The notes below the pieces were generated by a model. It saw only the letters and a program-made list of their open reading frames with translations, made no database searches and was not told where the DNA came from. From positions 2,710,001 through 2,774,000 of the forward strand of contig NZ_CP121446.1 of assembly GCF_030643905.1 (NCBI RefSeq): a stretch of DNA of 64,000 bases, read 5' to 3'. Below are positions 15,765-41,013 of this stretch, one piece after another; the stretch's first letter is position 1, and each line of letters starts with the position of its first letter. The position numbers and the translations under genes were made by a program. Origin of the DNA: Flavobacterium sp. IMCC34852. Lineage in GTDB: Bacteria; Bacteroidota; Bacteroidia; Flavobacteriales; Flavobacteriaceae.

Positions 15765-15781
15765 CCCAAAAAATTAAAACG

Positions 15782-18895: not shown

Positions 18896-18896
18896 T

Positions 18897-20391: not shown

Positions 20392-20394
20392 GCG

Positions 20395-20673
20395 ATGCCA
20401 TTCTACGAACCTTCAGAAAAAATGTTCCAAGAAATCCAAGAACATTTAAAAGAGATTACTGTTATTCTTAAAGAAAAACAGCAAATGAACCCAGACGACT
20501 TATTCTGCGACAATCAAGAGTTTATGAAAATTATGAACATAAGCAAACGATTAGCGCAAAGTTGGAGAGACAGCGGATTTATCGGCTATTGTCAGTTAGG
20601 TAACAAAATCTATTACCGCCTAAAAGACATTCAAAACCTACTTAACGAAAACTATAAACCGAAGAAAAAATGA
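20395..20673 (+). CDS. Small helix-turn-helix protein, second copy
   Basis: 92 residues. A helical N-terminus, then an HTH of the same type (FCDNQEFMKIMNISKRLAQSWRDSGFIGYCQLGNKIYYRLKDIQNLL). The stop overlaps the start of the primase-like gene by 4 nt, indicating translational coupling. Likely a replication or regulatory DNA-binding protein of the element. Confidence 0.83.
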   Translation: MPFYEPSEKMFQEIQEHLKEITVILKEKQQMNPDDLFCDNQEFMKIMNISKRLAQSWRDSGFIGYCQLGNKIYYRLKDIQNLLNENYKPKKK

Positions 20674-22946
20674 GTGAAGTAGTAAACAAACAGATGATGG
20701 TAAGCGTTTATAAAGAATTTAAATACAACTTAGGAGAAAGAAACCTTATTGATGTTTTTCAAGAAATCAAATCCGATAAATACCAAAGTGAAGTAAATTC
20801 TATTCGATACGCATTACACAAAGGAGACGAGAAAACAGCCGATGAAATTAAAAGCAGCTTAAATGGTTTTACAATGTCCGGCACATTTGGAACAAGTAGA
20901 ACCAAAGCCAACCTCAACACCTATTCTCAAATAATCGGATTAGACTTCGACCACATTCCAGTTACAGAACTCTACACATTGGTAAAGCTAATAAACGACT
21001 GCAAATACACGTTCGCATCGTTTATTAGTCCAAGTGGCGAAGGTATTAAAGTATTCATTAAAATCAACTCCAATGCAACACAACACACTACCGCATACAA
21101 TCAAGTGGCAACTTTTTATAAAAACCTATCAGGTTATGATTTTGATGCAAAATGCAAAGACATTACCAGATTGTGTTTTGTTTCTTATGATCCAGAGATT
21201 TATATAAAGGAAGATGCAACAATATTTGAAGTTCAAGAAGAAGCACTACCACTTCCAAAACCGCAAAAAGTGGAAACAACTTCTTTTGAAGCAACGGACA
21301 CTTTATTGGACAAATGCCTAAAATTCACAGAGCAAAAAGAACAATACACTAACGGCAATCGAAATAACTTCATTCATCTATTTGCATCCAATGCCAATCG
21401 TTTCGGGATTTACGAAGCCGATACGCTAGACTATTGTACTACTAATTTCGATTTGGACGAAAAAGAAATCAAAGCATCGGTTCAAAGTGCCTATAAAAAT
21501 CAGTCGGCAGATTTTGCCAAGTTTGCCGACTTTGCCAACCGCAAACCTCAACAACATCCTGTTGCGAAAGCCAAAGCAAAAAATGAAGCTATTGACGATG
21601 AAAATTACTTATTAAACACACCAACCATTCCGCAATCAGTTTACGACAACTTGCCTCCTATTCTTAAACAAGGCGCAGAAGCATTCTCCGAACCAAGAGA
21701 AAGAGATACGTTTCTAACAGGTGCTTTAGCAATTCTATCAGGTTGCTTACCAAATGTTACTGGTGAGTATGGTGGCAGAACCGTATATCCTCATTTATTT
21801 TCTTTCATTCTTGCTCCTGCTGCATCAGGTAAAGGTGCGTTACAATCTTCTAAAGAGTTAGCCGATAAATACCACGAAGAAGTCCTAAAAAATTCAAGAG
21901 AGCAAAAAAAAGAATACGACCTAAAAATGGCAGCTTACAAAAAAGCGCAACGTTTTCAAAAGAAAGACGACAATACACAAGAAGAAATTCCAGAAGAACC
22001 GCCATTCAAAGTAGTATTCATTCCTGCCAATACCAGTAATGCAAAAATTATCCAACACTTACAACAAAATGAAGGTACAGGTATTATTTGCGAAACCGAA
22101 GCCGATACGCTAGGACAAGTATTCAAAAACGATTGGGGTTCTTATTCCGATTTGTTACGAAAAGCATTCCATAGTGAAAAAATATCCATTTCAAGAAAAA
22201 CCAATAATGAGTATTTCGAAATCAACAATCCACGTTTAGCTGTTGCACTTTCGGGAACACCTCAACAAGTGTATAACATTATTGCATCTGCCGAAGATGG
22301 TTTATTTAGTCGTTTTGTTTTTTATGTTTTCAAAACCAACAGCAAATGGATTGACCCTTCTCCGTATGGCAACAGAGTAAATTTAACCGACCATTTTGCA
22401 AAGCTATCTATTGCAGTGTACGAAATGGTTTTGTTTCTCGATAGTGGCAAAACAACAATCCATTTAACCAAAGAACAATGGGACAAATTCAACCCAACAT
22501 TCAGCGAGTATTTAAGTCAAATTAGTGCCTTTGTTTCCGAAGATGCTCAAAGTATTGTAAAACGTTTAGGATTGGTTTTGTATCGAATGTGTATGATTTT
22601 TACAAGTATTCGTAAATTCCAAGCACAAGAACAAGCCACTGATATTCAATGTTTAGACGAAGATTTTGAAACAGCATCACAACTGATTGAAGTCTATTTA
22701 AAACACAACATTCTAATGTTCGAAAACCTACCAAAACAGGAAGACGAAGAAAATGGACCTTTCAAAAAAGGGCAAAACAAAAAACTATTCTTTGATGCCT
22801 TACCAAATAACTTCACACGAAAAGAAGCGGTGGAATTAGGTAGTACCTTTAATATAGCAGAAAGAACAGTCGGTTCATTTCTAAAATCTTGTTTAGGCAA
22901 TTATTTACAACAACCTGAATATGGGGCATATACAAAAATCATCTAA
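20670..22946 (+). CDS. BT4734/VirE-like plus DUF3987 protein (primase-helicase-like)
   Basis: 758 residues. The N-terminus (about 50-180) matches the BT4734-like/VirE N-terminal fold, seen in GLDFDHIPV and SPSGEGIKVFIKI, which are archaeo-eukaryotic primase-type features. A linker resembling a primase C-terminal region follows (about 215-285), then DUF3987 (about 320-650), a P-loop-type region with APAASGKGALQSSKELADK and a long charged helix. Such proteins are taken to be the replication initiator or helicase of Bacteroidota integrative elements. It closes a three-gene HTH-HTH-primase unit. Confidence 0.85.
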   Translation: MSEVVNKQMMVSVYKEFKYNLGERNLIDVFQEIKSDKYQSEVNSIRYALHKGDEKTADEIKSSLNGFTMSGTFGTSRTKANLNTYSQIIGLDFDHIPVTELYTLVKLINDCKYTFASFISPSGEGIKVFIKINSNATQHTTAYNQVATFYKNLSGYDFDAKCKDITRLCFVSYDPEIYIKEDATIFEVQEEALPLPKPQKVETTSFEATDTLLDKCLKFTEQKEQYTNGNRNNFIHLFASNANRFGIYEADTLDYCTTNFDLDEKEIKASVQSAYKNQSADFAKFADFANRKPQQHPVAKAKAKNEAIDDENYLLNTPTIPQSVYDNLPPILKQGAEAFSEPRERDTFLTGALAILSGCLPNVTGEYGGRTVYPHLFSFILAPAASGKGALQSSKELADKYHEEVLKNSREQKKEYDLKMAAYKKAQRFQKKDDNTQEEIPEEPPFKVVFIPANTSNAKIIQHLQQNEGTGIICETEADTLGQVFKNDWGSYSDLLRKAFHSEKISISRKTNNEYFEINNPRLAVALSGTPQQVYNIIASAEDGLFSRFVFYVFKTNSKWIDPSPYGNRVNLTDHFAKLSIAVYEMVLFLDSGKTTIHLTKEQWDKFNPTFSEYLSQISAFVSEDAQSIVKRLGLVLYRMCMIFTSIRKFQAQEQATDIQCLDEDFETASQLIEVYLKHNILMFENLPKQEDEENGPFKKGQNKKLFFDALPNNFTRKEAVELGSTFNIAERTVGSFLKSCLGNYLQQPEYGAYTKII

Positions 22947-23023: not shown

Positions 23024-24961
23024 ATGTCAGACAAACTCGATATGACTTCACCAGACTTGGTAAGCCAAAACATAGAAAAAATAGCCCAACTTTTCCCTAA
23101 TTGCGTTACAGAATCTGCCAATGGTTTAGCCATTGATTTTGACCAATTAAAGCAAGAGTTATCCAAAGATATTGTTGAAGGCAACAAAGAACGCTACCGA
23201 CTAGAATGGCCCGGAAAGCGTGAAGCTATCGTTACAGCCAATTTGCCCATTAACAAAACTTTACGTCCAGCTCGTGAAGAAAGTGTAGATTTTGACAACA
23301 CCGAAAACTTATACATTGAAGGCGACAACCTAGAAGTTTTAAAACTATTGCAAGAAAGTTATTTGGGAAAAATAAAAATGATTTACATCGATCCTCCGTA
23401 CAATACAGGAAAAGACTTTGTATATAAAGACAATTTTACACAAGATACAGACGAATACCAAGAAGAAGCCGGACTAAAAGACGAATACAACAACCGATTA
23501 GTTGCCAACCCAGATACTTCAGGACGTTACCACTCTGATTGGTTAACAATGATGTACCCAAGATTAAAATTAGCCAGAAATCTTTTAACTGATGATGGCG
23601 TGATTTTTATTTCGATTGATGATAACGAAGTGCATAATCTACGTAAAATATCTGATGAAGTTTTTGGGGATGATAATTTTGTTATTGAAATAGCTTGGAG
23701 AAAATCTGACAATCAAGCTAATATAGGAAACATTGCTAGGGTTAAAGAGTACATTTTGTGTTACACGAAAAGAAAAGATTTATTAAACCTTAATAAAATT
23801 CCATTAACTGATAAAGCAAAAAAAGAATATAGTTACAAAGATTCTGAAGGTTTTTTTAGAAGAGCTATTTTACTTCACAAAACTAGAGGAAGACATTATT
23901 ATGATGTTACAACAAAAAATGGTAATACTTTAAATGGTCCTTGGATGATTAAAGAAGATGAATTTTTAGAAAAAGACAGAAATAATGAAATACTTTGGAC
24001 TAATAGTGGAGATGAACAACCTTATGGCAAAATTTACTTACATAAATCTACTGGACAAATAGCAAATGATTTTTGGGATACAACTTTCGGTAGCAATCAA
24101 GAAGCAAGTATTAATCTTGAAAAAATATTTGAAAATAGAATATTTGATTTCCCAAAATCAACTAAACTTCTTAAAAATATTGTAACAATTGGTAGCGATA
24201 AAAAAGCAATTATTTTAGATTTCTTTTCAGGTTCTGCCTCAACAGCTCATTCGGTAATACAATTAAATGCAGAAGATGGTGGTAACAGAAAGTTTATTAT
24301 GGTACAAGTTCCAGAACGAACAGATGAAAAAAGTGAAGCTTTCAAAGCAGGTTATGATACCATTTGTGAAATTGGTAAAGAACGCATCCGTCGAGCAGGA
24401 AACGCAATCATAGATAATCAAAAAGCATTAATCAAACAAAAAGGAGAAGAATTAGAAAAAATTGAAGAGAAAAACGATTTAATAAAAGATGAAGAAAAAA
24501 TAGAATTATTACAATCAGAAATTAATGCTTTGCAATTTTCTATTGATAATTTAGATAAAGGTTTCAGAGTATACAAACTCGATAGCAGTAATATGCAAGA
24601 TGTATATTATACACCAAATCAATATGAACAAGGGCAACTAGATTTATTAGAAGACAACATAAAACCCGATAGAAATTCAGATGATTTAGTAGCTCAAATT
24701 ATGTTAGATTGGGGTTTACCCTTATCACTAAAAATTGAACAAACCAAAATAGCCAACAAAGAAGTGTTCAAAGTTGCTGATGATGCTTTGTTATGTTGTT
24801 TTGATGAAGGTATTGACGAAGCTTTTGCCAAAGAAATAGCTAAACTAAAACCGTTACGAATAGTTTTTAGAGATAAATCATTCAAAGACGACACCGCAAA
24901 AGAAAACGTAAAACAATTACTGAAACAGTTAAGCCCTGATTCTGAAATGAAAGTAATATAA
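23024..24961 (+). CDS. mod: Type III-like DNA (adenine-N6) methyltransferase, Mod
   Basis: 645 residues. Catalytic motif IV DPPYNTG (residues 123-129) precedes motif I DFFSGSAST (399-407), the beta-class order used by type III Mod subunits. Motif I has SGSAST where AGSGTT is usual. The region between (about 230-385) is the target-recognition part and is visibly more AT-rich than the ends, as if swapped. The C-terminus has a coiled coil (about 455-515) typical of Mod dimers. First gene of the operon; one base separates it from the next gene. Confidence 0.92.
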   Translation: MSDKLDMTSPDLVSQNIEKIAQLFPNCVTESANGLAIDFDQLKQELSKDIVEGNKERYRLEWPGKREAIVTANLPINKTLRPAREESVDFDNTENLYIEGDNLEVLKLLQESYLGKIKMIYIDPPYNTGKDFVYKDNFTQDTDEYQEEAGLKDEYNNRLVANPDTSGRYHSDWLTMMYPRLKLARNLLTDDGVIFISIDDNEVHNLRKISDEVFGDDNFVIEIAWRKSDNQANIGNIARVKEYILCYTKRKDLLNLNKIPLTDKAKKEYSYKDSEGFFRRAILLHKTRGRHYYDVTTKNGNTLNGPWMIKEDEFLEKDRNNEILWTNSGDEQPYGKIYLHKSTGQIANDFWDTTFGSNQEASINLEKIFENRIFDFPKSTKLLKNIVTIGSDKKAIILDFFSGSASTAHSVIQLNAEDGGNRKFIMVQVPERTDEKSEAFKAGYDTICEIGKERIRRAGNAIIDNQKALIKQKGEELEKIEEKNDLIKDEEKIELLQSEINALQFSIDNLDKGFRVYKLDSSNMQDVYYTPNQYEQGQLDLLEDNIKPDRNSDDLVAQIMLDWGLPLSLKIEQTKIANKEVFKVADDALLCCFDEGIDEAFAKEIAKLKPLRIVFRDKSFKDDTAKENVKQLLKQLSPDSEMKVI

Positions 24962-24962
24962 T

Positions 24963-26816
24963 ATGAACGAATATAGTGCCGAAGAGCTTTTTCAGTTATT
25001 AAACCAACAAGACGAATGCGATTGGATTGAAGCAAAAGGAGGACACGAAAGTTCTCATTCTGTTATGGAAACCGTTTGTTCTTTTGCTAACGAACCTGGT
25101 TTGGGTGGTGGCTATATTATTTTAGGAATAGCCGAAGATAAAACAGCGCTTTTTCCGCAATACAAAACCAACCATATTTCAGATCCTGATAAATTTCAAC
25201 GTGATTTTGTATCGCAATGCAGTTCTATGTTTAATATTCCTGTTCGCCCAAAGGTAACAGTAGAAAGGATTCACGGCGATACGGTTATAAAAATATTTGT
25301 AGCAGAATTACCATCCAATCAAAAACCTATTTATTTTAAAAGTGAAGGTTTGCCTCAAGGAGCTTTCAGAAGAATAGGACCAACAGACCAGCATTGCACA
25401 GAAGATGATATGCGAGTTTTTTATGCAGATGGCACTAGTTATGACCAATCCACAATCAAAGGTTCTAGCATCAATGATATTGACGAAAACGCAATAAACA
25501 AATACCGCACATTAAGAGAACGTATTAATCCTGTTGCCGAAGAATTAAGTTATACTGATGTTGAACTTTTAGAAGCGTTAGGATGTTTAAATAAAGAAAA
25601 TAAAACCGAACTAAATTTAGCAGGTTTGGTCTTGTTTGGTCATTCTAAGGCTTTGCGCGCTTTTTATCCTATGCTTCGAATAGACTATGTGAGAGTACCA
25701 GGCAATATTTGGGTAGAAGATCCGGACAATCGTTTTACTACTATCGATATGCGAGGACCTTTACTTACTTTGATTTACAGAATTATGGATGCCATAAACG
25801 CTGATTTGCCCAAAGGTTTTCTATTACCGGAAGATGGTTTACAAGCAACTTCAACAGGTTTGCCTACAAAAGCATTAAGAGAAGCTATTGTCAATGCCGT
25901 AATGCACAGGTCGTATAGAGAACACCGACCTATCCAAGTGATTCGATATGACAATCGTATCGAAATAATTAATCCGGGTTATTCTTTAAAGTCAGAAGAG
26001 CGACTAGGTGAACCTGGTAGTGAGACCAGAAATCCATTTATAGCAGCAGTTTTTCACGAAACCAATCTTGCTGAAACAAAGGGTTCAGGAATAAGAGCAA
26101 TGCGGAAATTAATGGTTCAAGCACATTTAGTGCCACCAACTTTTGATTCAGATAGAAATAGCAACCATTTTGTGTCTAGATTATTATTGCATCATTTTTT
26201 AGATGAAAAAGATTTAATTTGGTTACACAATTTTAGCCATTTAGAATTAACAGATGGTCAAAAACAAGCACTAATTTTTGTTCGTGAAGTAGGTGCAATA
26301 GACAACCAAACTTATCGTCAAATGACCGATTGTGATACACTTAAAGCAAGTAATGAATTAAGAGTATTAAAATCATATAATTTATTTGTTCCAAAAGGGA
26401 AAGGTAAAGCAACCTATTATATAGCAGGAAAAGTAATGCTAACATCTATAGCAACTGTAAGTACTCCAGCTCAAGATTTAAGTACACCACTTGCTTCATT
26501 AAGTACACCACTTGCTTCATTAAGTACACCACCTCAAGATTTAAGTACACCACCTTTGGCTATATTAGAACGTATAGAACAAATAAAAGATAGAGAACAC
26601 GATATAGAAAAGGTAAAAAGCATTATAATAGATTTGTGTGCTTTTAAAACTATGAAAGCTTCAGAGATAGCTAAATATCTAAACAAAGGGGATGATTATC
26701 TAAAAAGAAAATATTTGAGTGATATGATTAAAGAGAAACAACTTTTTTATTTATATCCCGAAATGATCAATCATCCCGAACAAGCTTACAAAATTCCAGA
26801 AACAAACAACGAATGA
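24963..26816 (+). CDS. AlbA_2 / GHKL ATP-binding protein (RecG-like, Schlafen-type)
   Basis: 617 residues. The N-terminus has the AlbA_2 (Schlafen-like) fold (EWIEAKGGH-type start, CSFANEPGLGGGYIILGIAED), then a GHKL ATPase-like region around 300-400 (ALREAIVNAVMHRSYREH and GSGIRAM). Residues about 500-534 are five STPxxxL repeats encoded by a 21-bp tandem repeat. A winged-helix-like C-terminus ends the protein. AlbA_2 proteins are common in defence islands as nucleic-acid-sensing or nuclease components. The stop overlaps the next start (ATGA). Confidence 0.87.
   Translation: MNEYSAEELFQLLNQQDECDWIEAKGGHESSHSVMETVCSFANEPGLGGGYIILGIAEDKTALFPQYKTNHISDPDKFQRDFVSQCSSMFNIPVRPKVTVERIHGDTVIKIFVAELPSNQKPIYFKSEGLPQGAFRRIGPTDQHCTEDDMRVFYADGTSYDQSTIKGSSINDIDENAINKYRTLRERINPVAEELSYTDVELLEALGCLNKENKTELNLAGLVLFGHSKALRAFYPMLRIDYVRVPGNIWVEDPDNRFTTIDMRGPLLTLIYRIMDAINADLPKGFLLPEDGLQATSTGLPTKALREAIVNAVMHRSYREHRPIQVIRYDNRIEIINPGYSLKSEERLGEPGSETRNPFIAAVFHETNLAETKGSGIRAMRKLMVQAHLVPPTFDSDRNSNHFVSRLLLHHFLDEKDLIWLHNFSHLELTDGQKQALIFVREVGAIDNQTYRQMTDCDTLKASNELRVLKSYNLFVPKGKGKATYYIAGKVMLTSIATVSTPAQDLSTPLASLSTPLASLSTPPQDLSTPPLAILERIEQIKDREHDIEKVKSIIIDLCAFKTMKASEIAKYLNKGDDYLKRKYLSDMIKEKQLFYLYPEMINHPEQAYKIPETNNE
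26460..26564 (+). repeat. Five 21-bp tandem repeats inside the AlbA_2 gene
   Basis: Units start at 26460, 26481, 26502, 26523 and 26544, each beginning AGTAC(A/T)CC. Units 2 and 3 are identical. They encode STPAQDL, STPLASL, STPLASL, STPPQDL, STPPLAI. Since 21 is a multiple of three, copy changes would alter linker length without shifting frame. Confidence 0.9.
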
Positions 26817-29800
26817 AATTACAATTCAAAGAACAACAATTTCAAATTGATGCAGTAAAAGCAGTAGTTGATTGTTTTGCAGGGCAACCTATCAAAACCA
26901 ATCGCTTCACTTTAGAACGCTCAAAAGATATTATCAATAAAGCCAAACAATTGGCTAAAGGTCAACTTAAAACAGGTTTAGAAGAAGAAGTAATGGAAAA
27001 CATAGGGTATAGAAATACACCTATTCAAATTACCGATAATCAAATTTTAGAAAATCTTAAAAGAGTTCAGTTTGCAAACGATATCCCAGAAAGCACACAA
27101 TTAGAAAGACCAAAAGGATTAAATCTTGGTTACAATTTAACGATTGAAATGGAAACAGGTACAGGAAAAACCTATACTTACATCCGTAGTATGTTTGAAT
27201 TGAATAAAGAATACGGTTGGAGCAAGTTTATAATAATTGTCCCAAGCATTGCCATTCGTGAAGGGGTTTACAAATCGTTTGAAGTAACCCAAGACCATTT
27301 TCAAGAAATTTATCAGCATAAAATAACACCATTTATTTATAATTCTTCTCGTCCACAAGACATTGAGAATTTTGCTTCAGATAGCCGCATTAGTGTAATG
27401 ATTATTAACACTCAAGCTTTTGCAGCAACAGGTAAAGATGCTAGGCGTATCAAGATGGAATTAGACCAATTTGGTTCAAGAAAGCCAATTGAAATACTTG
27501 CACAGACAAATCCTATTTTAATTATTGATGAACCTCAATCGGTAGGAAAGCAAGATTCTAAAACTTTGGAAAGTATGCAAGACTTTAATCCTATGATGTG
27601 TTTAAGGTATTCTGCAACCCACGCAATTAATGAAGAGTATAACAAAGTCTTCCGTTTAGATGCTTTAGATGCTTATAACAGAAAACTAGTAAAAAAAATA
27701 CAAGTAAAGGGAATCAACTTAAAGGGTACAACAGGAACAAATGGATATTTGTATTTAGAAAATATAGTAGTTAGCAAAGACAAAGCACCAGTTGCAGCAG
27801 TTGAATATGAAGTAAGAAATGCAAGTGGAGCAACAAAACGTATTCGACAAAAACTATCTAAAGGAGCAAATTTATTTGACCTATCAGGTAATATGCCACA
27901 ATACAAAAATCAAGTCATTCAAGAAATTGACGGCTATCATAATAAAATTGTAATTAATGGTTTAGAATTGTTTGCAGGCGAAGTGATTGGCGATTTCTAC
28001 GAACAAGATTTTAGAAGAATTCAAATCCGAGAAACCATTTATTCACACCTTAAAAAAGAAAAACAATTATTCGATAAAGGAATAAAAGTGTTATCGTTAT
28101 TCTTTATTGATTCTGTTGAAAAATACAAACAATACAACGAATTAGGAGAAGAAATTGCAGGTGAATATGCCAAAATATTTGAAGAGGAATACAATAAATT
28201 ACGAAGTGAATTTTTAGATTTATTTCATCAAGAATACAACGAATATCTAAAAGAAAGTGATCCAAGCAATGTTCATAAAGGATATATGCCGAGCAATTAT
28301 TTTAGTTATGTAGAAAGAGATTCAGCCGACAAAATACACAATGGTTATTTTTCTATCGATAAGAAAAACAAAATGATTGACCCAACGGTAAAACGTGGCA
28401 AAGAAGATTCAGAGGATATTTCGGCATACGATTTAATTATGAAAGACAAAGAACGTTTGTTGAGTTTTGATGAACCAACACGTTTTATATTCTCTCACTC
28501 AGCTTTAAAAGAAGGTTGGGACAATCCCAATGTATTTCAAATTTGTGCTTTAAAACATTCTGATGCTACAATAAGAAGAAGGCAAGAAGTTGGACGTGGG
28601 ATGCGTTTATGTGTAAATGAACATGGAAACCGATTAGATTTTGAAACCGTTGGTGAACAAGTTCACGAAATAAACAGATTAACAGTTATTGCTTCTGAGA
28701 GTTACGAGGAATTTGCAAAGGGCTTACAGTCTGAAATTGCTGCAACTTTAAAAGACAGACCTCAAAAAGCAGAAGTCGATTTCTTTATAGGGAAATTAGT
28801 TACAGATACTTTAGGACAAAGTATAAGATTAACAGAAGAGATTTCAAAAAAGCTAAACAAGTTTTTATACAAAAATGACATACTTGATGATGAAGATAAA
28901 ATAACAACTGATGGAAAAGTAAAAATTGAAAGCAATCAAGTTCCATTGCCAGAAAATCTTGAACCATTTAGAGAAGATATAACGAAGCTTTTAAAATCAA
29001 TCTATACAGGCGATGGTATCAATATAGAAAATGACAGAAACAACGTTGAAGTTGCAGTAAATAGTAATTTTCATAAAAAAGAGTTTCAAGACCTTTGGAA
29101 TAAAATTAATATTAAATCTATTTATGAAGTAAAATTTGATACCGATAAACTTATAGAAGATAGTAAAAACAGAATCAATAAAGATTTACATATTGCTGAC
29201 AGAAGTTATGAAGTTAAAGAAGGAGTTTTAGAACAAACAACCAAACAAAAAATTGACAATAACGAAGCCATACAAGTTACAAGTCGTGCTACTAAAAAAC
29301 TAGATACAGATGTTTATACTAATACTGTTTATGACATCATAGGTGAAATAGTTAATGCAACAAACTTAAAAAGAACAACAGTTGTAACCATTCTTAAAAA
29401 GATAAATCCAAATCAATTTTATTTGATTAGAAAAAATCCCGAAGAGTTCATTGCAAAATGCAGTAAGTTGATAAATGAAACAAAAGCAAGTTTAATTATC
29501 AATAACATTGTTTATCACAAAACAGAAGATAGATACGATGCTAAAACGGTTTTTACCAATTCGAAAGAATCATTACGTCAAACAGAAATACTAAAAAAAC
29601 ACATATACGATTATCTTGTATCCGATTCAAAAGTAGAAAGAGATTTTGCAAATGCATTAGAAGCTAGCGAAGAAGTGACGGTTTATGCCAAACTTCCAAG
29701 TGGTTTTAAAATAACAATACCGAATGGCACTTATAATCCAGATTGGGCAATTGTATTTGATAAAGATAAAGTAAGACAAATATACTTTATTGCTGAAACT

Positions 29801-29953
29801 AAAGGTTCTGATTCTGAAATGGATTTAAGAAGTATTGAAAAACTTAAAATACATTGTGCCAAAGTACATTTTCCAGTAATTAGCGATAATGAAGTGAAAT
29901 TTGATGTTGTTAATTCGTATGAAAAGATGATGGAAATCGTGCAATTAAAATAA
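26813..29953 (+). CDS. res: Type III-like restriction subunit (DEAD helicase with PD-(D/E)xK nuclease)
   Basis: 1046 residues. Helicase motif I GTGKT at 116-120, motif II DEPQ at about 239-242 (the variant usual for type III Res), SATH as motif III, and RRRQEVGRGMRLC as motif VI near 590. The C-terminus has a nuclease core: PDW at 976-978 and ETK at 995-997, the D...ExK pattern. Together with Mod this is a complete type III-like restriction pair, which cuts unmodified DNA after ATP-driven communication between sites. The start overlaps the upstream stop by 4 nt. Confidence 0.92.
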   Translation: MKLQFKEQQFQIDAVKAVVDCFAGQPIKTNRFTLERSKDIINKAKQLAKGQLKTGLEEEVMENIGYRNTPIQITDNQILENLKRVQFANDIPESTQLERPKGLNLGYNLTIEMETGTGKTYTYIRSMFELNKEYGWSKFIIIVPSIAIREGVYKSFEVTQDHFQEIYQHKITPFIYNSSRPQDIENFASDSRISVMIINTQAFAATGKDARRIKMELDQFGSRKPIEILAQTNPILIIDEPQSVGKQDSKTLESMQDFNPMMCLRYSATHAINEEYNKVFRLDALDAYNRKLVKKIQVKGINLKGTTGTNGYLYLENIVVSKDKAPVAAVEYEVRNASGATKRIRQKLSKGANLFDLSGNMPQYKNQVIQEIDGYHNKIVINGLELFAGEVIGDFYEQDFRRIQIRETIYSHLKKEKQLFDKGIKVLSLFFIDSVEKYKQYNELGEEIAGEYAKIFEEEYNKLRSEFLDLFHQEYNEYLKESDPSNVHKGYMPSNYFSYVERDSADKIHNGYFSIDKKNKMIDPTVKRGKEDSEDISAYDLIMKDKERLLSFDEPTRFIFSHSALKEGWDNPNVFQICALKHSDATIRRRQEVGRGMRLCVNEHGNRLDFETVGEQVHEINRLTVIASESYEEFAKGLQSEIAATLKDRPQKAEVDFFIGKLVTDTLGQSIRLTEEISKKLNKFLYKNDILDDEDKITTDGKVKIESNQVPLPENLEPFREDITKLLKSIYTGDGINIENDRNNVEVAVNSNFHKKEFQDLWNKINIKSIYEVKFDTDKLIEDSKNRINKDLHIADRSYEVKEGVLEQTTKQKIDNNEAIQVTSRATKKLDTDVYTNTVYDIIGEIVNATNLKRTTVVTILKKINPNQFYLIRKNPEEFIAKCSKLINETKASLIINNIVYHKTEDRYDAKTVFTNSKESLRQTEILKKHIYDYLVSDSKVERDFANALEASEEVTVYAKLPSGFKITIPNGTYNPDWAIVFDKDKVRQIYFIAETKGSDSEMDLRSIEKLKIHCAKVHFPVISDNEVKFDVVNSYEKMMEIVQLK

Positions 29954-29958
29954 TTTGA

Positions 29959-32900
29959 ATGAAAATAATTGATAACATAACTTCAAGACTTGGAGAGGAT
30001 TTAAAAGCCGAGATTACAAAGGGAAGCAAATTAAGTATTGCAGCTTCCTCATTTTCTATTTATGCTTTTGAAGCACTTAAAAAAGAATTAAAAGGTATTG
30101 ACGAATTAGAATTTATTTTTACTTCACCAACCTTTATTGAAGATAAGTTTCAAAAGATTTCAAGAGAGTTTTATATACCTCATATTGTCAATGAAAGTCA
30201 ATTATGTGGTGGCGATTTTGAACTACGATTAAAAAATGAATTAAATCAAAAAGCCATTGCAAAAGAATGTTCAACTTGGATTAAAGAAAAGGTAACATTC
30301 AAATCCAATAAACAAAATAATCTTCCATTAAACGGCTTAATAAATGTTGAAAAAGGAGAACAATCGGTTAGTTATTCAAATATTACAGGTTTTACAAGTT
30401 CCGATTTAGGAGTAACACACAAACAAGGATTTCCAACGTTAATTCAAAAAGTAGATTTCCCAAATAGTAAAGCTTATGTAGATTGGTTCAAACAAATTTG
30501 GGATAATGAAGAATACTTAAAAGAAGTAACAGAACAAGTTCAAGAGTTTTTTGAAAATGCTTTCAAAGAAAATAGTCCTGAGTTCATTTACTTCATTACT
30601 CTATATAATATTTTCAATGACTTTTTAGAAGATATTAATTCCGATAATTTGCCAAATGATGATGTAGGTTTCAAAGAAACTTTAATTTGGAACAAACTTT
30701 TTAACTTTCAAAAAGATGCCGTTATTGGCGCTATAAATAAGCTAGAGCGTTACAATGGTTGCATAGTTGCAGATAGTGTTGGTTTAGGTAAGACTTTCAC
30801 AGCATTAGGAATTATTAAATACTACGAAAAGCGAAATAAAGATGTTTTGGTTTTATGTCCTAAAAAGCTAGAAGCCAATTGGAACACATTTAGACAAAAC
30901 GATAAAAATAATCTTTTAGCGAAGGATAAATTCAATTACGATGTTTTATTTCACACCGATTTATCACGTGAAAAAGGTATGAGTAATGGTCGTAATTTAG
31001 AGTTAGTAAATTGGGGTAATTATGGTTTAGTAGTTATTGATGAATCGCACAATTTTAGAAACAATAGCACTTCGGTAGGTAAAGAAAATAGGTATCAAAA
31101 ACTATTAAGAAAAATTGTTCAAGAAGGAATTGAAACTAAAGTTTTGATGCTTTCAGCAACGCCTGTAAATAATAGATTTAATGATTTAAAAAATCAATTG
31201 GCTATTGCTTATGAAGGAGCTTCTTTTGAAATTAATGATCGTTTAAATACCGAAAGAAATATTGATACAGTTTTTGTTAGAGCGCAAAAGTCTTTTAATA
31301 CTTGGTCTAAATTATCTAATGACGATAGAACAACTGAAAAGCTTTTAGAAATGCTTGATTTTGATTTTTTTGAGATATTAGATAGTTTAACAATTGCACG
31401 TTCTAGAAAACATATCACAAAATATTATGATACTTCAGATATTGGTAAATTTCCAGTAAGGAATAAACCTGTATCTATTCACAGCCCATTAACAGATAAG
31501 AAAATAAATTTTGAAAATATTGCGGAAAGATTAACGCTTTTAAACCTTTCTGTTTATTCTCCATTAAATTATATTTTACCAAGTAAAGTTCAGTTGTATG
31601 CTGATAAGTATGATAAAAAAGTAAAATCAGGTTCAGGAACTTTTACGCAAGTAGACAGAGAGAAAAGTTTGCAGTTATTAATGCGCATTAATTTATTAAA
31701 GCGTATTGAGAGTTCCATTGATTCATTTCGTTTGACTTTAAATGATATTTTATCTCAAATAAAAACTAGATTAGAATTACTAAAAAAAGAAAATACAGAT
31801 TCAGTTTCAAGTGTGCAATGGGATATAGATAATGAAAATGTTGATTGGGATGCAGATTGGGGTGATGAAGAAAACATAATTGGTAAAAAAGTAAAAGTTA
31901 GAGTTGAGGATTTAGATAAGACAAGATGGATTGAAGATTTAGAAGTAGATTTAGACAATTTACAAACATTATCTGATGAAGTTAGTAATATTAGCCGTTC
32001 AAGCGATATTAAACTAAAAAAGTTGATGGAAGTTGTTGAAGAAAAATTTCAAAATCCAATAAACGAAAACAATAGAAAAGTAATAATTTTTACAGCCTTT
32101 GCCGATACAGCTAATTATTTATATAATAGTTTAAAAGATACTTTATTAGAAAATTATAATATCAATACAGCATTAATTACCGGTTCAAAAAGATTATGTA
32201 CTAGTAAAAATATTAATACTGATTTGAATACATTGTTAACTTGTTTTTCTCCGATTTCAAAAAACAAAAAGGATATATTTCCAAATCTTGAAGACAGTAT
32301 TGACGTTCTAATTGCAACCGACTGTATTTCAGAAGGACAGAATTTACAAGATTGTGATTTTCTTATTAATTATGATATACATTGGAATCCTGTTAGAATA
32401 ATTCAGCGATTTGGTAGAATAGACAGAATAGGCTCTATTAATTCAAGTATTACAATGGTCAACTTTTGGCCAGATGTTTCTTTGGATGCATATATAAATT
32501 TAAAGCAACGTGTTGAAGATAGAATGCTTATTAGTAATATGGCTAGTACAGGTGATGATAACATTTTAAAAACCGATGATAAAGATTTAGAATACCGCAA
32601 AATTCAATTAAAAAAATTACAAGAAGAAGTTGTTGACCTTGAAGATCTAAGAGAAGGAGTTAGCATAACAGATTTAGGATTGAATGACTTTAGAGTAGAT
32701 TTATCAAACTTCCTCAAAAAATATGGAAAACTAAAAAATATCCCAGAAGGAATTTATGCAGTTGCAGAAGCAGAAAATGAAGAAAGCAAAGGAGTAATTT
32801 TTGTTTTAAGAAATATCAATAATGAAGTAAATATTGATAAACAAAATCGTTTGCATCCATATTACATAATCTACATTAAAGAAAACGGCGAAATAATCCA

Positions 32901-33186
32901 CAATCATTTTGATGCGAAAAAATCATTAGATGCAATCAGACTACATTGTAAAGGATATTACGAACCATTAACAGAATTATGCGACAAGTTTTGTGATGAA
33001 ACAAATGATTTCAAAAATATGGATTTCTATTCCAATTTATTAAAAAAATCAATTGGTTCTATCGTTAAGACCGAAGCAGATAAAGATATTAAAAGTTTAT
33101 TCCGTTCTGGCGGTACAACAGCATTAACTAATAATGTGAAAGGTTTAGAAGATTTTAGTTTAATTTCATTCGTAGTAATAAAATGA
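29959..33186 (+). CDS. SNF2-family helicase with degenerate PLD-like N-terminal domain
   Basis: 1075 residues. The N-terminus (about 1-165) looks like a phospholipase D fold: a KLSIAASSFSIYAFEAL start and GFTSSDLGV at the place of the usual GSSNFT-type segment, but without an HxK catalytic motif. The SNF2 core has Walker A ADSVGLGKT (271-279), DESH (361-364), SATPVNNR, and the C-terminal QRFGRIDRIG (about 816-825). Enzymes of this layout occur in defence islands, for instance as DISARM-type translocases. It starts 5 nt after res and its stop overlaps the next start. Confidence 0.9.
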   Translation: MKIIDNITSRLGEDLKAEITKGSKLSIAASSFSIYAFEALKKELKGIDELEFIFTSPTFIEDKFQKISREFYIPHIVNESQLCGGDFELRLKNELNQKAIAKECSTWIKEKVTFKSNKQNNLPLNGLINVEKGEQSVSYSNITGFTSSDLGVTHKQGFPTLIQKVDFPNSKAYVDWFKQIWDNEEYLKEVTEQVQEFFENAFKENSPEFIYFITLYNIFNDFLEDINSDNLPNDDVGFKETLIWNKLFNFQKDAVIGAINKLERYNGCIVADSVGLGKTFTALGIIKYYEKRNKDVLVLCPKKLEANWNTFRQNDKNNLLAKDKFNYDVLFHTDLSREKGMSNGRNLELVNWGNYGLVVIDESHNFRNNSTSVGKENRYQKLLRKIVQEGIETKVLMLSATPVNNRFNDLKNQLAIAYEGASFEINDRLNTERNIDTVFVRAQKSFNTWSKLSNDDRTTEKLLEMLDFDFFEILDSLTIARSRKHITKYYDTSDIGKFPVRNKPVSIHSPLTDKKINFENIAERLTLLNLSVYSPLNYILPSKVQLYADKYDKKVKSGSGTFTQVDREKSLQLLMRINLLKRIESSIDSFRLTLNDILSQIKTRLELLKKENTDSVSSVQWDIDNENVDWDADWGDEENIIGKKVKVRVEDLDKTRWIEDLEVDLDNLQTLSDEVSNISRSSDIKLKKLMEVVEEKFQNPINENNRKVIIFTAFADTANYLYNSLKDTLLENYNINTALITGSKRLCTSKNINTDLNTLLTCFSPISKNKKDIFPNLEDSIDVLIATDCISEGQNLQDCDFLINYDIHWNPVRIIQRFGRIDRIGSINSSITMVNFWPDVSLDAYINLKQRVEDRMLISNMASTGDDNILKTDDKDLEYRKIQLKKLQEEVVDLEDLREGVSITDLGLNDFRVDLSNFLKKYGKLKNIPEGIYAVAEAENEESKGVIFVLRNINNEVNIDKQNRLHPYYIIYIKENGEIIHNHFDAKKSLDAIRLHCKGYYEPLTELCDKFCDETNDFKNMDFYSNLLKKSIGSIVKTEADKDIKSLFRSGGTTALTNNVKGLEDFSLISFVVIK

Positions 33187-33821
33187 CCTATTTTGAACTT
33201 CCAAAATCTACTATTGTAAATAGATTTATACCTAAAAACGCTTTTGATGATTATACTAATTCATCGCAAAAAAAGAAGTTTACAGATACTATTGATAAAA
33301 TCACTTGGCTAAATAAATTGTCAAAGGACACGATCAATCTTGATGGAAATGATGTAAAGGAAATTCAAATATTTGAAATCAAATTAAAAACAAAAGAAAA
33401 AATTCAGCCATTACTAAATGTTATTGATAAAGCAATTCCATATCACATTGTTTTTATAGTAACATTTGGTGAAGAAACTTATTTAAGCACATCCAAGAAA
33501 CACAATCACATAAATAATGAAAATACAGCAGTTATAGATTGGAATTTCATTTCAGAATGGCAGCCTAATGCAAAGAAAAAATTATCGCTTAACTTAAAAG
33601 AAAGTATAGATTTTATTTTCACCGATTTATGTTCTCAAATATCAGGATTTCAAAGTAAAAATATAAAAGAGATAATTGAAAAAGACAGCTCTAAAACAAA
33701 GTTTAAAAAGCAAATCGAAGAACTTGAAGTGAAGATTAAAAAAGAAAAACAATTCAATCTAAAAGTAGAAATGAATCAAAAACTAAAAGAGCTTAAAAAA
33801 GAATATAAAGAGTTGAAATAA
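33183..33821 (+). CDS. DUF4391 family protein
   Basis: 212 residues. The block YFELPKSTIVNRFIPK near the start, then IQIFEIKLKTKE and PYHIVFIVTFGEE in the core, fits DUF4391. The C-terminus is a Lys/Glu coiled coil (about 170-212). The family function is unknown; from memory, members sit beside SNF2 helicases and restriction genes, as here. The core alternation of beta strands with IxxFEIxLK is loosely like a restriction-enzyme fold, but no catalytic triad is evident. The ATG overlaps the helicase stop (ATGA). Confidence 0.85.
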   Translation: MTYFELPKSTIVNRFIPKNAFDDYTNSSQKKKFTDTIDKITWLNKLSKDTINLDGNDVKEIQIFEIKLKTKEKIQPLLNVIDKAIPYHIVFIVTFGEETYLSTSKKHNHINNENTAVIDWNFISEWQPNAKKKLSLNLKESIDFIFTDLCSQISGFQSKNIKEIIEKDSSKTKFKKQIEELEVKIKKEKQFNLKVEMNQKLKELKKEYKELK

Positions 33822-33839
33822 TATACTAAAAAAATCAAT

Positions 33840-35867
33840 TTGGAAAACCTTAAAATAAACATCATCCCATTCCAACATCCTTCAGCAAAGAAAGAGTTTG
33901 GTTTTTACAAAGAAAAAAAAGACGGCTTCTATCCTATTCATAGAGGAGATTTGCCCAATGAGATATGGGATAATTTTAAGACAGAATTACAAGACCTCAA
34001 GTTCTTGTATTCCAATTTTTCAGACACACAAGATTGTGATATGACAGCATCAGTAGATATGTTTCACAGCACTACTTTTGCAAAACATTATTATACAAGA
34101 TTGGTGTACAATTATTTTTATGCTATTGCCGATGCCATACAATTCAATTACGTTAAAGATATTGAGGTTTGGTTTATAGATACTAAAGAAGTAGCAACGA
34201 CTTTCAAAACATATAACAAATACACTTTAAAAGTAGAGTTTTCTGGTCTAACAAAAAGTCCTGCATTACTCCTTTCCTATGACGGAACTTCCAAAATTGC
34301 AACAACAAGTATAGATAAGATAGACATTCCATCAAACTATTTTAAAACAGTAGTATATAAAAAAGAAATATTCAAATTCGATTTACTGTCAGAAGAAGCA
34401 AAACAAAACCTCGAACAAGTATTTCCATTACTAAACATACCAATAAAAAACCACCTCAGCATACCTCACAGCGTACCCAAAAAAGGAAATAGATACAAAC
34501 CATATTTCAACTACATAAACGATTTTTACAATAAGTATTTAAACACAGAAGCGTTTAAAAAGATGCTACCATTAGATGAAAATGGCTTTTTTACTATTCC
34601 TGAAAAAGACATTCATAAAACACATCAAAACTCAAACAACTTAAGGTTTTTCAATAATACTAGCATCGACCCAAGAGGAGGTATGAAAAGTTTTGGACCA
34701 TATCAAGCAAGTCCACACCCAAACGTTCGATTTTTCTTTATATACCACAAACCAGACCGTAAAGAGTATGTAATTCCATTATTTAGCTATTTTGAAAAAG
34801 GATATAAAACTTTTTTTCCTCCGCTAAAAACCCATATCAAACAACCATTCTATATGGATAAAGATACCAGTTTAGCTTTTGAAAGTACAACTACTGCTGT
34901 AAAAGAACTTAAACACCATCTAATCAATTTAGAAAAAACTCCAAATACAAGATATGTAGCAATCTATATAAGTCCAATTCATAAAGAAGACCAGGACAAC
35001 AAACAATTATACTACCAAGTAAAAGAAGAACTATTAAAACACGAAATAACCTCACAAGTAATCTATAAAGAAAGCATCAACAATGCCTATTTTGGAGAGT
35101 TTTTAGCAAACATAACACCAGCGCTATTAGCAAAAATAGATGGTATTCCGTGGCGTTTAGATAGAGAACTAAAACAAGAATTAATTGTAGGTGTTGGTGC
35201 TTTTAAATCAGTCGAAACCAATACACGTTTTGTAGGCAGTGCCTTTTGTTTTAATAACAAAGGAGAATTCAAAGGCTTCGATTGTTTCCGTGACAACGAA
35301 TATGATTTAATAGCTGGTGCAATTGGAAAACAAATATTAAAATTTGTAGTAGATAATGGCAACGATGTAGAAAGATTAATAATCCACTACTACAAACCAA
35401 TGGGTAAGGAAGAAATAGACCCAATTCAAAAAGTATTAAAAACATTAAATTTAAATATTCCAGTAATAATAATTACAATCAATAAAACAGAAGCAAACGA
35501 CTATGTAGCATTCGATACTAGTAGCGAAGCGTTGATGCCATTAAGCGGTACAATTATAGAAATTGCAAAGCTAAAATACTTACTATTCAATAATGCAAAA
35601 TACAGCGAAAGTGGCACAACAAAAGACTATCCGTTTCCAGTAAAGTTAGCATTAAGCTGCACAGATGAAGAATATTTAAAAGACATTCCAACAGTAAAAG
35701 AGTTAATAGATCAAGTATATCAATTCAGCCGAATGTATTGGAAATCAATAAAACAACAAAACCTACCAGTAACCATAAAATACCCAGAAATGGTAGCGCA
35801 AATATTCCCACACTTCGAAGGAGACAAACTACCTGATTTCGGCAAAAATAACCTTTGGTTTTTGTAA
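33840..35867 (+). CDS. ago: Prokaryotic Argonaute (PIWI protein), probably catalytically inactive
   Basis: 675 residues from a TTG start, 18 nt after the DUF4391 stop. The MID domain is near 365-430; YYQVKEELLKHEITSQVIYK (391-410) has the Tyr..Lys..Gln..Lys spacing of a 5'-phosphate guide pocket. The PIWI domain runs about 430-675: WRLDRELKQELIVGVGAF and a C-terminal MYWKSIKQQNLPVTIKYPE. Where active Argonautes have the first catalytic Asp (GxD), this has GVGAF (451-455); the later strand that normally gives the next Asp reads IHYYKPMG. Loss of both suggests guide-directed binding without cleavage, as in long-B pAgos, which act through partner effectors. No other ATG gives a comparable N-terminus. 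Confidence 0.88.
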   Translation: MENLKINIIPFQHPSAKKEFGFYKEKKDGFYPIHRGDLPNEIWDNFKTELQDLKFLYSNFSDTQDCDMTASVDMFHSTTFAKHYYTRLVYNYFYAIADAIQFNYVKDIEVWFIDTKEVATTFKTYNKYTLKVEFSGLTKSPALLLSYDGTSKIATTSIDKIDIPSNYFKTVVYKKEIFKFDLLSEEAKQNLEQVFPLLNIPIKNHLSIPHSVPKKGNRYKPYFNYINDFYNKYLNTEAFKKMLPLDENGFFTIPEKDIHKTHQNSNNLRFFNNTSIDPRGGMKSFGPYQASPHPNVRFFFIYHKPDRKEYVIPLFSYFEKGYKTFFPPLKTHIKQPFYMDKDTSLAFESTTTAVKELKHHLINLEKTPNTRYVAIYISPIHKEDQDNKQLYYQVKEELLKHEITSQVIYKESINNAYFGEFLANITPALLAKIDGIPWRLDRELKQELIVGVGAFKSVETNTRFVGSAFCFNNKGEFKGFDCFRDNEYDLIAGAIGKQILKFVVDNGNDVERLIIHYYKPMGKEEIDPIQKVLKTLNLNIPVIIITINKTEANDYVAFDTSSEALMPLSGTIIEIAKLKYLLFNNAKYSESGTTKDYPFPVKLALSCTDEEYLKDIPTVKELIDQVYQFSRMYWKSIKQQNLPVTIKYPEMVAQIFPHFEGDKLPDFGKNNLWFL

Positions 35868-36016: not shown

Positions 36017-36694
36017 ATGAAAATTTTAATAATAGAAGACGAAATCGAAATTGCCACAAGTATCAAAAGCTACTTGAGTAGTAATGATTTTGTATGTGAA
36101 TCGGCAAGCACACTAAAAATAGCAATAGAAAAGATCGATTTATATTCCTATGATTGTATTCTTTTAGATTTGATGTTGACGGATGGTGATGGATTTAAAG
36201 TTTTAGAAGCATTAAAAAAGCAAAACAAAACAGATGGAGTCATTATAATTTCTGCCAAAGACACTCTTGAAACCAAAATCGAAGGACTAACACTTGGTGC
36301 AGATGACTACCTTACAAAACCATTTCATTTATCGGAATTACTAGTACGAATTCAAGCATTAGTTAGAAGAAAACAATTCAATGGAAACAATGTGATTTCC
36401 TTTAATGAAATAGAAATAGATACGATAAGCAAGTCGGTCAAATTCAAAGGAAATAAAATCGAGTTTACCAAAAAAGAAATGGATTTATTATTATTTTTGA
36501 TTGGTAATAAAAATAAAGTCTTGTCCAAAAGTGCCATTGCCGAGCATTTATCTGGCGATATGGCGGATATGCTAGACAATCATGATTTTGTATATGCACA
36601 TATAAAAAACATGAAAAAAAAGCTCAAAGAAATGGGTGCGGCCGATTACCTAAAATCAGTTTACGGAACAGGATATAAATGGGAAGATGAATAA
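36017..36694 (+). CDS. OmpR/PhoB-type response regulator
   Basis: 225 residues. Receiver domain (1-115) with acidic IIEDE, phospho-acceptor Asp in CILLDLMLTDGDG, and Lys in YLTKPFH. A winged-helix DNA-binding domain (about 128-225) includes FTKKEMDLLLFL and YLKSVYGTGYKW. Its stop overlaps the start of the kinase gene by 8 nt. The likely binding sites are the three 38-nt elements in this cassette. Confidence 0.94.
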   Translation: MKILIIEDEIEIATSIKSYLSSNDFVCESASTLKIAIEKIDLYSYDCILLDLMLTDGDGFKVLEALKKQNKTDGVIIISAKDTLETKIEGLTLGADDYLTKPFHLSELLVRIQALVRRKQFNGNNVISFNEIEIDTISKSVKFKGNKIEFTKKEMDLLLFLIGNKNKVLSKSAIAEHLSGDMADMLDNHDFVYAHIKNMKKKLKEMGAADYLKSVYGTGYKWEDE

Positions 36695-37952: not shown

Positions 37953-37988
37953 AATTCAATATTTCTTCAAATTCCATGCAGACCTTTG
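37951..37988 (+). promoter_or_regulatory. Candidate operator/promoter, upstream of the outer-membrane receptor
   Basis: AAAATTCAATATTTCT then TCAAA and, 17 nt later, CTTTG. TTCAA occurs twice 11 nt apart. The first 16 nt and the last 6 nt are identical to the element at 40448-40485. Confidence 0.65.
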
Positions 37989-38012
37989 TTGAAAAAAATA
38001 AAAGGGAAAAGT

Positions 38013-40427: not shown

Positions 40428-40447
40428 ATTTTATTTTGCTTTAATTC

Positions 40448-40485
40448 AAAATTCAATATTTCTACAAAATTGGTTTACACCTTTG
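40448..40485 (+). promoter_or_regulatory. Candidate operator/promoter, upstream of the PepSY-like gene
   Basis: AAAATTCAATATTTCT, then ACAAA, and CTTTG at the end; same 38-nt length as the other two elements. The direct repeat is TTCAA/TACAA at 11 nt. It lies 29 nt before the ATG at 40515. Confidence 0.65.
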
Positions 40486-40514
40486 ACTATTATTAATTCA
40501 AAAAAAAAATAGTC

Positions 40515-40937: not shown

Positions 40938-40951
40938 TTTTTTCATGTTTG

Positions 40952-40987: not shown

Positions 40988-41013
40988 TTTTAAAATAACC
41001 AAATAATATACCT

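What the first reader, a model, noticed from the sequence alone, without database searches (positions are those of the whole stretch)
23024..35867. Six-gene operon joining a type III-like restriction set, SNF2 helicase, DUF4391 and Argonaute
Seen: mod, AlbA_2/GHKL, res, SNF2, DUF4391 and pAgo lie on one strand with gaps or overlaps of +1, -4, +5, -4 and +18 nt, so they should be one transcript. Known: type III Mod/Res and SNF2 helicases are defence enzymes; DUF4391 and AlbA_2 proteins sit in defence islands. Inferred: the Argonaute is a member of the system, perhaps giving guide-based recognition to the helicase-nuclease, or the operon has captured it. I know of no described system with this exact set.
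Basis: partly seen in the sequence, partly recalled or inferred. Interest (0 to 1): 0.88.

Follow-up and report, generated by a model that had tools for sequence, protein, structure and literature searches.

The report
Argonaute-bearing mobile element with swappable defences
The Argonaute gene does not seem to belong to one restriction system; it looks like a resident gene of a bacterial mobile element that exchanges the restriction or other defence genes placed just in front of it.

Summary
The six-gene run is real, with all five gaps as reported, but composite. DUF4391 loci elsewhere in the phylum have SNF2 and Mod beside them but no Argonaute (0 of 27). The Argonaute belongs to an element spanning 17177-48327, between two copies of the last mnmE codons: excisionase, integrase, DUF6617, two HTH genes, primase-helicase, defence slot, pAgo, second slot, conserved protein, SNase-family gene. 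Across 80 related loci the slot before pAgo holds type I, type III, SNF2-type or other systems, or nothing, with no detectable tie to pAgo ancestry (28 changes; shuffled mean 30.1). pAgo divergence follows the backbone (r 0.46-0.90) more than HsdM, HsdR or Mod (0.15-0.36). Six of 390 phylum genomes pass the DUF6617 cut-off; all six carry this pAgo 9-16 kb downstream. The pAgo resembles RsAgo, has lost catalytic residues and is under strong purifying selection, also where the slot is empty. Best reading: a guided recognition or exclusion gene of the element, co-transcribed with the defence operon upstream. Architecture about 0.9, function about 0.4.

The parts
17177..17190 (+). attL: TGTATCGGAAAGTA, last codons (CIGK-stop) of mnmE
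   Evidence: Pattern TGTATYGGNAARTA: 2 hits in the window, 0.04 expected
15743..17191 (+). mnmE, host gene whose 3' end is the integration site
   Evidence: NCBIfam mnmE over cut-off
17368..17781 (+). HTH protein, probable excisionase
   Evidence: phrog_66 excisionase and regulator, E 7.5e-14; cluster c28, 6 sequences incl. the window; a zinc-finger part is my reading of the sequence
17789..18895 (+). tyrosine integrase
   Evidence: Pfam Phage_integrase, SAM_5, Arm-DNA-bind_5
18846..19967 (+). DUF6617 protein, element marker
   Evidence: Pfam PF20322; phylum scan
20089..20391 (+). HTH_17 protein 1
20395..20673 (+). HTH_17 protein 2
20670..22946 (+). primase-helicase: BT4734-like_N plus DUF3987
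   Evidence: Pfam; phrog_18375 primase/helicase
23024..24961 (+). Slot 1: type III Mod methyltransferase
   Evidence: PADLOC MTase_III E 3.2e-226; Pfam N6_N4_Mtase
24963..26816 (+). Slot 1: SLFN_AlbA_2 / HATPase_c_4 protein
26813..29953 (+). Slot 1: type III Res helicase-nuclease
   Evidence: Pfam ResIII and RE_endonuc; PADLOC REase_III
29959..33186 (+). Slot 1: SNF2-type helicase
   Evidence: best PADLOC model C3a139 HKD+Snf2, E 5.9e-131; no PLD match by Pfam
33183..33821 (+). Slot 1: DUF4391 protein
   Evidence: Pfam PF14335 E 1.7e-51
33840..35867 (+). pAgo with lost catalytic residues, resident gene of the element
   Evidence: Pfam Piwi; PADLOC PDLC02385; model pLDDT 87, closest fold RsAgo
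36017..45474 (+). Slot 2 cargo: response regulator, histidine kinase, outer-membrane protein, sulfatase family, DAGK, DUF347, PAP2
   Evidence: no alignment to L032 between pAgo and 45656, although the backbone on both sides is 95-96% identical
46822..47625 (-). Conserved right-end protein c9, no known family or fold
   Evidence: 17 sequences incl. the window; no Pfam in 16 members; no fold match at E 0.001 or better
47715..48206 (+). Staphylococcal nuclease-family protein at the right end
   Evidence: Pfam SNase; cluster of 11 sequences incl. the window
48314..48327 (+). attR: TGTATCGGGAAATA
   Evidence: homology of the window to L032, L027 and L038 ends here

Best explanation
The run is composite. 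A type III-like defence module (Mod, AlbA_2, Res, SNF2, DUF4391) occupies the interchangeable first cargo slot of a 31-kb element that integrates into the 3' end of mnmE. The pAgo behind it is a resident gene of the element, at the boundary between two cargo slots. Shown by sequence: element ends, conserved backbone, exchange of slot 1 in front of pAgo, divergence of pAgo along with the backbone, invariant guide-pocket residues, lost catalytic residues, strong purifying selection. Inferred: pAgo has no conserved promoter of its own and is transcribed as the last gene of whatever operon fills slot 1, or with the HTH gene c2 if the slot is empty. Inferred, about 0.4: it is a guide-directed binder like RsAgo that recognises competing plasmids, phages or sister elements and silences or marks them, with any cutting done by another enzyme (a host nuclease, the element's SNase-family protein, or the resident defence system). 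The defence operon is a second, independent layer for host and element.
For: Architecture: 80 related pAgo loci, the best of 202. A left-backbone gene lies upstream in 43 of 80 within the 10 kb held; the integrase is on the same contig, 14-22 kb upstream on the same strand, in 9 more; right-end markers alone in 7 more. att motif twice in the window and once in 18 of the 80 loci: 13 to the right of pAgo, 5 in mnmE, none on the other strand. DUF6617 over cut-off in 6 of 390 phylum genomes, all 6 with this pAgo 9-16 kb downstream (two read out). Slot 1 differs in 12 of 17 hand-picked close pairs, for example L079 vs L081, 7.2 kb of type I genes between c2 and pAgo; L054 vs L055, 4.8 kb inserted 42 nt before pAgo; L030 vs L033, backbone 93.9%, pAgo 94.6%, nothing shared between. 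28 class changes on the pAgo tree against 30.1 when shuffled. Identity correlations of pAgo: D6617 0.90, Int 0.67, hth1 0.65, c9 0.62, prim 0.59, c2 0.46; Mod 0.36, HsdR 0.26, HsdM 0.15. Independence from slot 1: no defence gene between c2 and pAgo in L035, L061, L039, L079; L035-L061 dN/dS 0.028 at dS 1.26. Protein: Y391, K395, Q406, K432 and the last residue L675 invariant in 36 sequences (their role as 5'-phosphate pocket is recalled from AfAgo); the segment G-V-G-A-F aligns with those of AfAgo and RsAgo, where active Argonautes have the first catalytic Asp (recalled).
Against: No experiment shows activity, guides, excision or transfer. 21 of the 80 loci show no element marker in view. Two further genomes have DUF6617 matches below the cut-off (E about 7e-4) and no pAgo match. 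Three phylum genomes with more distant pAgos (34-36% identity) gave no integrase at E 1e-60 and no DUF6617 match, so the link holds for one clade. Correlations with Mod, HsdR and HsdM are weaker but not zero (p 0.002-0.033), and primase itself correlates with Mod at 0.55 (n 12), so restriction genes are not wholly free of the backbone. Five of 17 close pairs share most of slot 1 or are both empty, and in several others the one gene next to pAgo is shared. Between the window and L032 the backbone is 95-96% identical but pAgo only 80.6%, so pAgo can be replaced too. The constant short gap would also suit a partnership with defence operons. The window lacks c2. Makarova et al. 2009 found pAgo neighbourhoods enriched in restriction genes but not in mobilome genes (p 0.63; PMC2743648, passage), over all pAgos.
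Confidence: 0.6

Rival explanations
1. General partner: pAgo works with any DNA-targeting operon placed in slot 1, for instance by loading fragments made by restriction as guides, so that a fixed-specificity system gains sequence memory.
For: Same strand in 76 of 77 sequences, median gap 18 nt, 57 of 75 gaps at most 50 nt; 57 of 67 labelled sequences have type I, type III or SNF2 genes in slot 1; in swapped pairs shared sequence starts at or just before the pAgo start or with one adjoining gene, so no promoter of its own is seen to be conserved.
Against: Elements with an empty slot keep pAgo under strong selection (L035-L061, dN/dS 0.028). Slot contents are mechanistically unrelated: type ISP enzyme, BrxL/PglZ, OLD with UvrD, Abi_2.
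Confidence: 0.25
2. One reading: pAgo is a dedicated subunit of the Mod-AlbA_2-Res-SNF2-DUF4391 system and lends it guide-based recognition.
For: Gap of 18 nt to DUF4391, one strand.
Against: pAgo near 0 of 27 other DUF4391 loci, although SNF2 is found in 21 and Mod in 20 of them (up to 1.5 kb on each side, some cut by contig ends; one further place over the cut-off had no locus). DUF4391 was not found by tblastn in any of the 80 other pAgo loci (distant ones could be missed). The three other loci with the SNF2 cluster have different companions.
Confidence: 0.04
3. Anchor: pAgo is kept mainly because homologous recombination in this conserved gene, lying between two cargo slots, lets elements trade cargo; its protein function is secondary.
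For: Both slots exchange at its borders. Fragments of the pAgo 3' end lie downstream of pAgo in 4 of 80 loci, two cases of near-identical pairs.
Against: dN/dS 0.025-0.15 in 13 of 13 pairs (dS over 1 in two of them) and invariant pocket residues show selection on the protein.
Confidence: 0.1

Closest known systems
Long-B pAgo subclade with og_54 (VirE N-terminal domain protein), Song et al. 2023, PMC10620215 (passages read)
   Same: Inactive long pAgo; [quoted passage not shown] that VirE_N was an older name of this family is recalled). Probably the same clade; not tested, supplements were not available.
   Different: The passages describe association and leave function open; they mention no mobile element, att sites or swappable defence slot.
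RsAgo (Rhodobacter sphaeroides long-B pAgo)
   Different: About 15% identity; RsAgo has a predicted nuclease gene downstream (PMC10620215, passage), here there is no constant neighbour.
BPAN/BPAS/BPAM long-B systems (PMC10620215, passages)
   Same: Inactive long pAgo.
   Different: Their effector genes lie downstream of pAgo in a conserved operon; here the genes on both sides vary.
Defence hotspots of P4-like satellites and P2-like phages, Rousset et al. 2022, PMC9122126 (passages read)
   Same: Defence genes turn over between two conserved genes of a mobile element.
   Different: Those slots are about 1-5 kb; slot 1 of the window is 10.9 kb and one border gene is an Argonaute. Of ten proteins given to PHROGs only integrase, excisionase, HTH/regulator, primase/helicase, nuclease and unknown-function families matched.
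pAgo operon survey, Ryazansky et al. 2018, PMC6299218 (passages and section 12)
   Same: Reports HsdS, type III restriction enzyme, lambda-repressor HTH, AlbA_2 and RND efflux genes in pAgo operons, several of them for long-B pAgos.
   Different: Found no consensus operon for long-B pAgos; the element described here offers one source for such neighbours, as slot cargo.

Membership tests
Long-B pAgo | Long Argonaute: MID-PIWI core with an N-terminal half | tested here: met
   Piwi by Pfam; model aligned over residues 1-675 to RsAgo and others; the PAZ part was not examined
Long-B pAgo | Catalytic tetrad lost | tested here: met
   Alignment to AfAgo and RsAgo and among 36 sequences; positions of the tetrad are recalled, active sites were not superposed
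Long-B pAgo | Falls in the long-B branch of a reference tree | not tested
   No reference set was aligned
BPAN/BPAS/BPAM | Conserved effector gene downstream of pAgo | tested here: not met
   Downstream genes vary across the 80 loci
Type III restriction-modification | Mod and Res subunits | tested here: met
   MTase_III E 3.2e-226, REase_III E 7.5e-287, RE_endonuc domain
DISARM | drmA, drmB, drmC with a DISARM methylase (set recalled) | tested here: not met
   Six proteins of the run scanned: the SNF2 protein scores 167.7 bits for DrmD against a cut-off of 610 and hits DrmA with the same helicase region; DrmB and DrmC do not appear in the lists shown (the SNF2 list was cut at 25 of 33)
Integrative mobile element | Integrase and flanking direct repeats | tested here: met
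Integrative mobile element | Excision or transfer | not testable with these tools
   Needs junction PCR or mating
Conjugative element | Relaxase or conjugation genes | tested here: not met
   None among the 18 ORFs of 150 aa or more in 17.2-48.3 kb, all given to Pfam
P4-like phage satellite | Relatives in phage or viral collections, packaging genes | tested here: inconclusive
   pAgo in no phage record and none confirmed among viral contigs; backbone genes were not searched there

The most novel reading that the evidence does not exclude
An Argonaute serves as a universal add-on for interchangeable restriction operons: cut invader DNA from whichever system sits upstream supplies its guides or targets, giving fixed-specificity restriction a guided memory that moves with the element.
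Probability: 0.12. Interest if true: 0.9.

Novelty: new variant of a known kind. Interest (0 to 1): 0.62.

Why it matters
It gives a home to what looks like a long-B pAgo subclade of unassigned function, suggests why pAgo surveys found restriction genes, HTH regulators and efflux pumps nearby without a consensus operon, and defines a Bacteroidota defence carrier (uncommon, 6 of 390 sampled genomes, but spread over several families) whose first slot can be mined for new defence systems. It also warns that operon adjacency to an Argonaute need not mean joint function.

Tried and rejected
Chance neighbour: rejected, since the position of pAgo is constant across loci. Dedicated subunit of the DUF4391 set: rejected by the reverse search. 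DISARM: rejected. att near the pAgo stop codon: first sought there and not found; the right end lies 12.4 kb further on. The c9 fold search gave no E of 0.001 or better; the weak C2-like rows are not evidence. PHROGs had no match for pAgo, DUF6617 or c9. Plasmid records gave 11 distant partial matches to pAgo, phages none. Genes of the window's right flank were not found next to mnmE in the 15 mnmE loci examined, so no syntenic empty site was seen. Literature: ten searches listed no paper that I could see joins this pAgo, its integrase or DUF6617 and a restriction slot; for most papers I saw listings only, passages of six (PMC6299218, PMC2743648, PMC10620215, PMC11837570, PMC9122126, PMC5862659; of the first also one whole section). 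Only open-licence papers are held. One search was badly posed and uninformative.

Limits: genes were called by a simple ORF script and grouped by BLAST single linkage; class labels are coarse (type III = any of clusters c8, c20, c21, c51; type I = any of c3, c4, c6; SNF2 = c44, given precedence); 14 of 81 were unlabelled. Only the best 80 of 202 confirmed loci were available. The phylum samples (395; 390) differ in size; shared handles show overlap, not identity. The Mantel tests ignore shared ancestry. That 59 of 80 loci show some element marker is my addition. Pairs were picked by hand.
Full report
1. The observation. The six ORFs, their strand and the gaps (+1, -4, +5, -4, +18) are as reported. 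Pfam and PADLOC show a type III Mod (MTase_III, E 3.2e-226), an AlbA_2/HATPase_c_4 protein, a type III Res with endonuclease domain, an SNF2 helicase (best model C3a139 'HKD+Snf2'), DUF4391 (Pfam only) and a Piwi-domain protein. The genome holds a single Piwi match. The host is probably Flavobacterium, inferred from L032 (Flavobacterium sp.), whose element backbone is 95-96% identical.

3. The neighbourhood elsewhere. A scan of reference genomes gave 202 confirmed relatives, of which the best 80 were held with up to 10 kb on each side. The gene order repeats: HTH excisionase-like gene, integrase, DUF6617, HTH, HTH, primase-helicase, often an HTH_3 gene (c2, 31 of 80 loci), a defence operon, pAgo, varied cargo, DUF6943 and small genes, c9 on the other strand, SNase (families). 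Left-backbone genes are in view in 43 of 80. In the other genomes searched there the best integrase was on another contig or weak. Seven more loci show right-end markers only; 21 show none, many on short or cut contigs.

4. The element's ends. TGTATYGGNAARTA, the CIGK-stop codons of mnmE, occurs at 17177 and 48314 and nowhere else in the window (2 found, 0.04 expected, 0 of 100 shuffles with 2). In the 80 loci it occurs once each in 18: in mnmE in 5, to the right of pAgo in 13, always in the same orientation. Homology of the window to L032, L027 and L038 ends at 48327-48330. The repeat TATTTGTTGCCCAAT near both ends may be an integrase arm site. The element is therefore about 31.15 kb. No relaxase or virion gene was recognised by Pfam among its 18 ORFs of 150 aa or more.

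5. What is fixed and what is swapped. Against L032, the left backbone (20145-22991) is 95% and the right (45656-48327) 96% identical; between them only pAgo aligns, at 80.6%, from start to stop. I compared 17 hand-picked close pairs: slot 1 differs in 12, and is shared for most of its length, or empty in both, in 5. L079 has c2 then pAgo, L081 has 7.2 kb of type I genes between the same two; L055 carries 4.8 kb of Mod/Res genes that L054 lacks, 42 nt before pAgo; L030 and L033 share backbone and pAgo at 94-95% and nothing between. In several pairs the one gene next to pAgo is shared as well (RhuM, DUF5655 or YhcG type). On the pAgo tree the class of slot 1 changes 28 times (67 labelled of 81; shuffled mean 30.1, 39 of 200 shuffles as low), that is, no detectable tie to pAgo ancestry. 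Pairwise identity of pAgo correlates with DUF6617 (0.90, n 18), integrase (0.67, n 9), hth1 (0.65, n 25), c9 (0.62, n 16), primase (0.59, n 33) and c2 (0.46, n 31), and less with Mod (0.36, n 19), HsdR (0.26, n 24) and HsdM (0.15, n 23), though the last three are not zero (p 0.002-0.033). As a check, primase correlates with integrase (0.91, n 8) and DUF6617 (0.73, n 17), but also with Mod (0.55, n 12), less with HsdR (0.43, n 8) and not with HsdM (-0.16, n 12). Slot 1 also holds a type ISP enzyme (L085), BrxL/PglZ genes (L100), OLD with UvrD (L062), Abi_2 (L054) or nothing (L035, L061, L039, L079).

6. Independent counts. In 390 genomes of the phylum DUF6617 passes its cut-off in 6, and all 6 carry this pAgo 9-16 kb downstream on the same strand and contig; two were read out. 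Two more genomes have matches below the cut-off and no pAgo match. Of 9 genomes with pAgo matches at E 1e-100 or better 6 are these; the other three, at 34-36% identity, gave no integrase at E 1e-60 and no DUF6617 match. That integrase threshold also missed G126, which does have one. In the reverse direction 28 places besides the window pass the DUF4391 cut-off and 27 had a locus: SNF2 in 21, Mod in 20, both in 16, pAgo in none, within up to 1.5 kb on each side.

7. Mechanism. The pAgo start follows the upstream stop by a median of 18 nt whatever that gene is, and in several swapped pairs shared sequence begins at or just before the pAgo start, in others with one adjoining gene. I infer read-through expression from slot 1 or from c2. 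Because elements with an empty slot keep pAgo under strong selection (L035-L061 dN/dS 0.028, dS 1.26), I infer that it works without the slot's system, most likely as a guided binder against competing DNA, as reported for RsAgo (PMC10620215, passage). Cutting must come from elsewhere; the SNase-family gene at the right end is a candidate, untested. A general partnership with any defence operon remains possible.

8. Literature. Song et al. 2023 (passages) describe a long-B subclade with a VirE-N protein 2-8 genes upstream and leave its function open; our primase fits. Ryazansky et al. 2018 (section 12 read) list restriction, HTH, AlbA_2 and RND genes in pAgo operons and found no consensus operon except for one other group. 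Makarova et al. 2009 (passages) found restriction genes enriched near pAgos but mobilome genes not (p 0.63), over all pAgos of their set; a single element family in one phylum might not show in that test, but the result is not in my favour. A primase survey (PMC5862659, passages) predicts DUF3987 to be a helicase for replication of mobile elements, which fits. The Rousset et al. 2022 hotspots (passages) are the closest working model for the slot. Novelty: a new variant of a defence-carrying element, with an Argonaute as resident gene.

Noticed in passing
36017-45474: Slot 2 cargo: two-component system, outer-membrane protein, sulfatase-family protein, DAGK, DUF347, PAP2; it looks like envelope modification or stress response. 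L059 (Lacibacter) has a similar RR-HK pair right after pAgo (72% and 52%).
   Followed up: partly
L028:13280-13450, L029:10214-10384, L091 and L093:12356-12563: Fragments of the pAgo 3' end lie downstream of the full gene, suggesting recombination in this gene when cargo changes.
   Followed up: partly
46822-47625 (-): c9, a conserved right-end protein without Pfam family or confident fold match despite a good model of its C-terminal part (pLDDT 86 or more in every block from residue 81).
   Followed up: partly
L119-L135, L145-L147: SNF2 and Mod both lie next to DUF4391 in 16 of 27 other loci; PADLOC gave no match for DUF4391 and one paper in the library mentions the name. Possibly an undescribed type III-like system.
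   Followed up: partly
L177:12496-14565, L178, L179: Sister pAgos at 34-36% identity sit outside the element, with an upstream protein of about 430-460 residues in each that may be their own partner.
   Followed up: no
L155, L158, L159, L161, L163: In 4 of 12 other same-genus mnmE loci a different integrase (31-34% identity) follows mnmE, and in one same-order locus a closer one (57%), so mnmE is a shared integration hotspot.
   Followed up: no
L036, L062, L063, L073, L080, L085, L088: A member of the AlbA_2 cluster (c14, by BLAST only) is the nearest called gene upstream of pAgo apart from short ORFs; Ryazansky et al. report AlbA_2 fused to some long-B pAgos.
   Followed up: no
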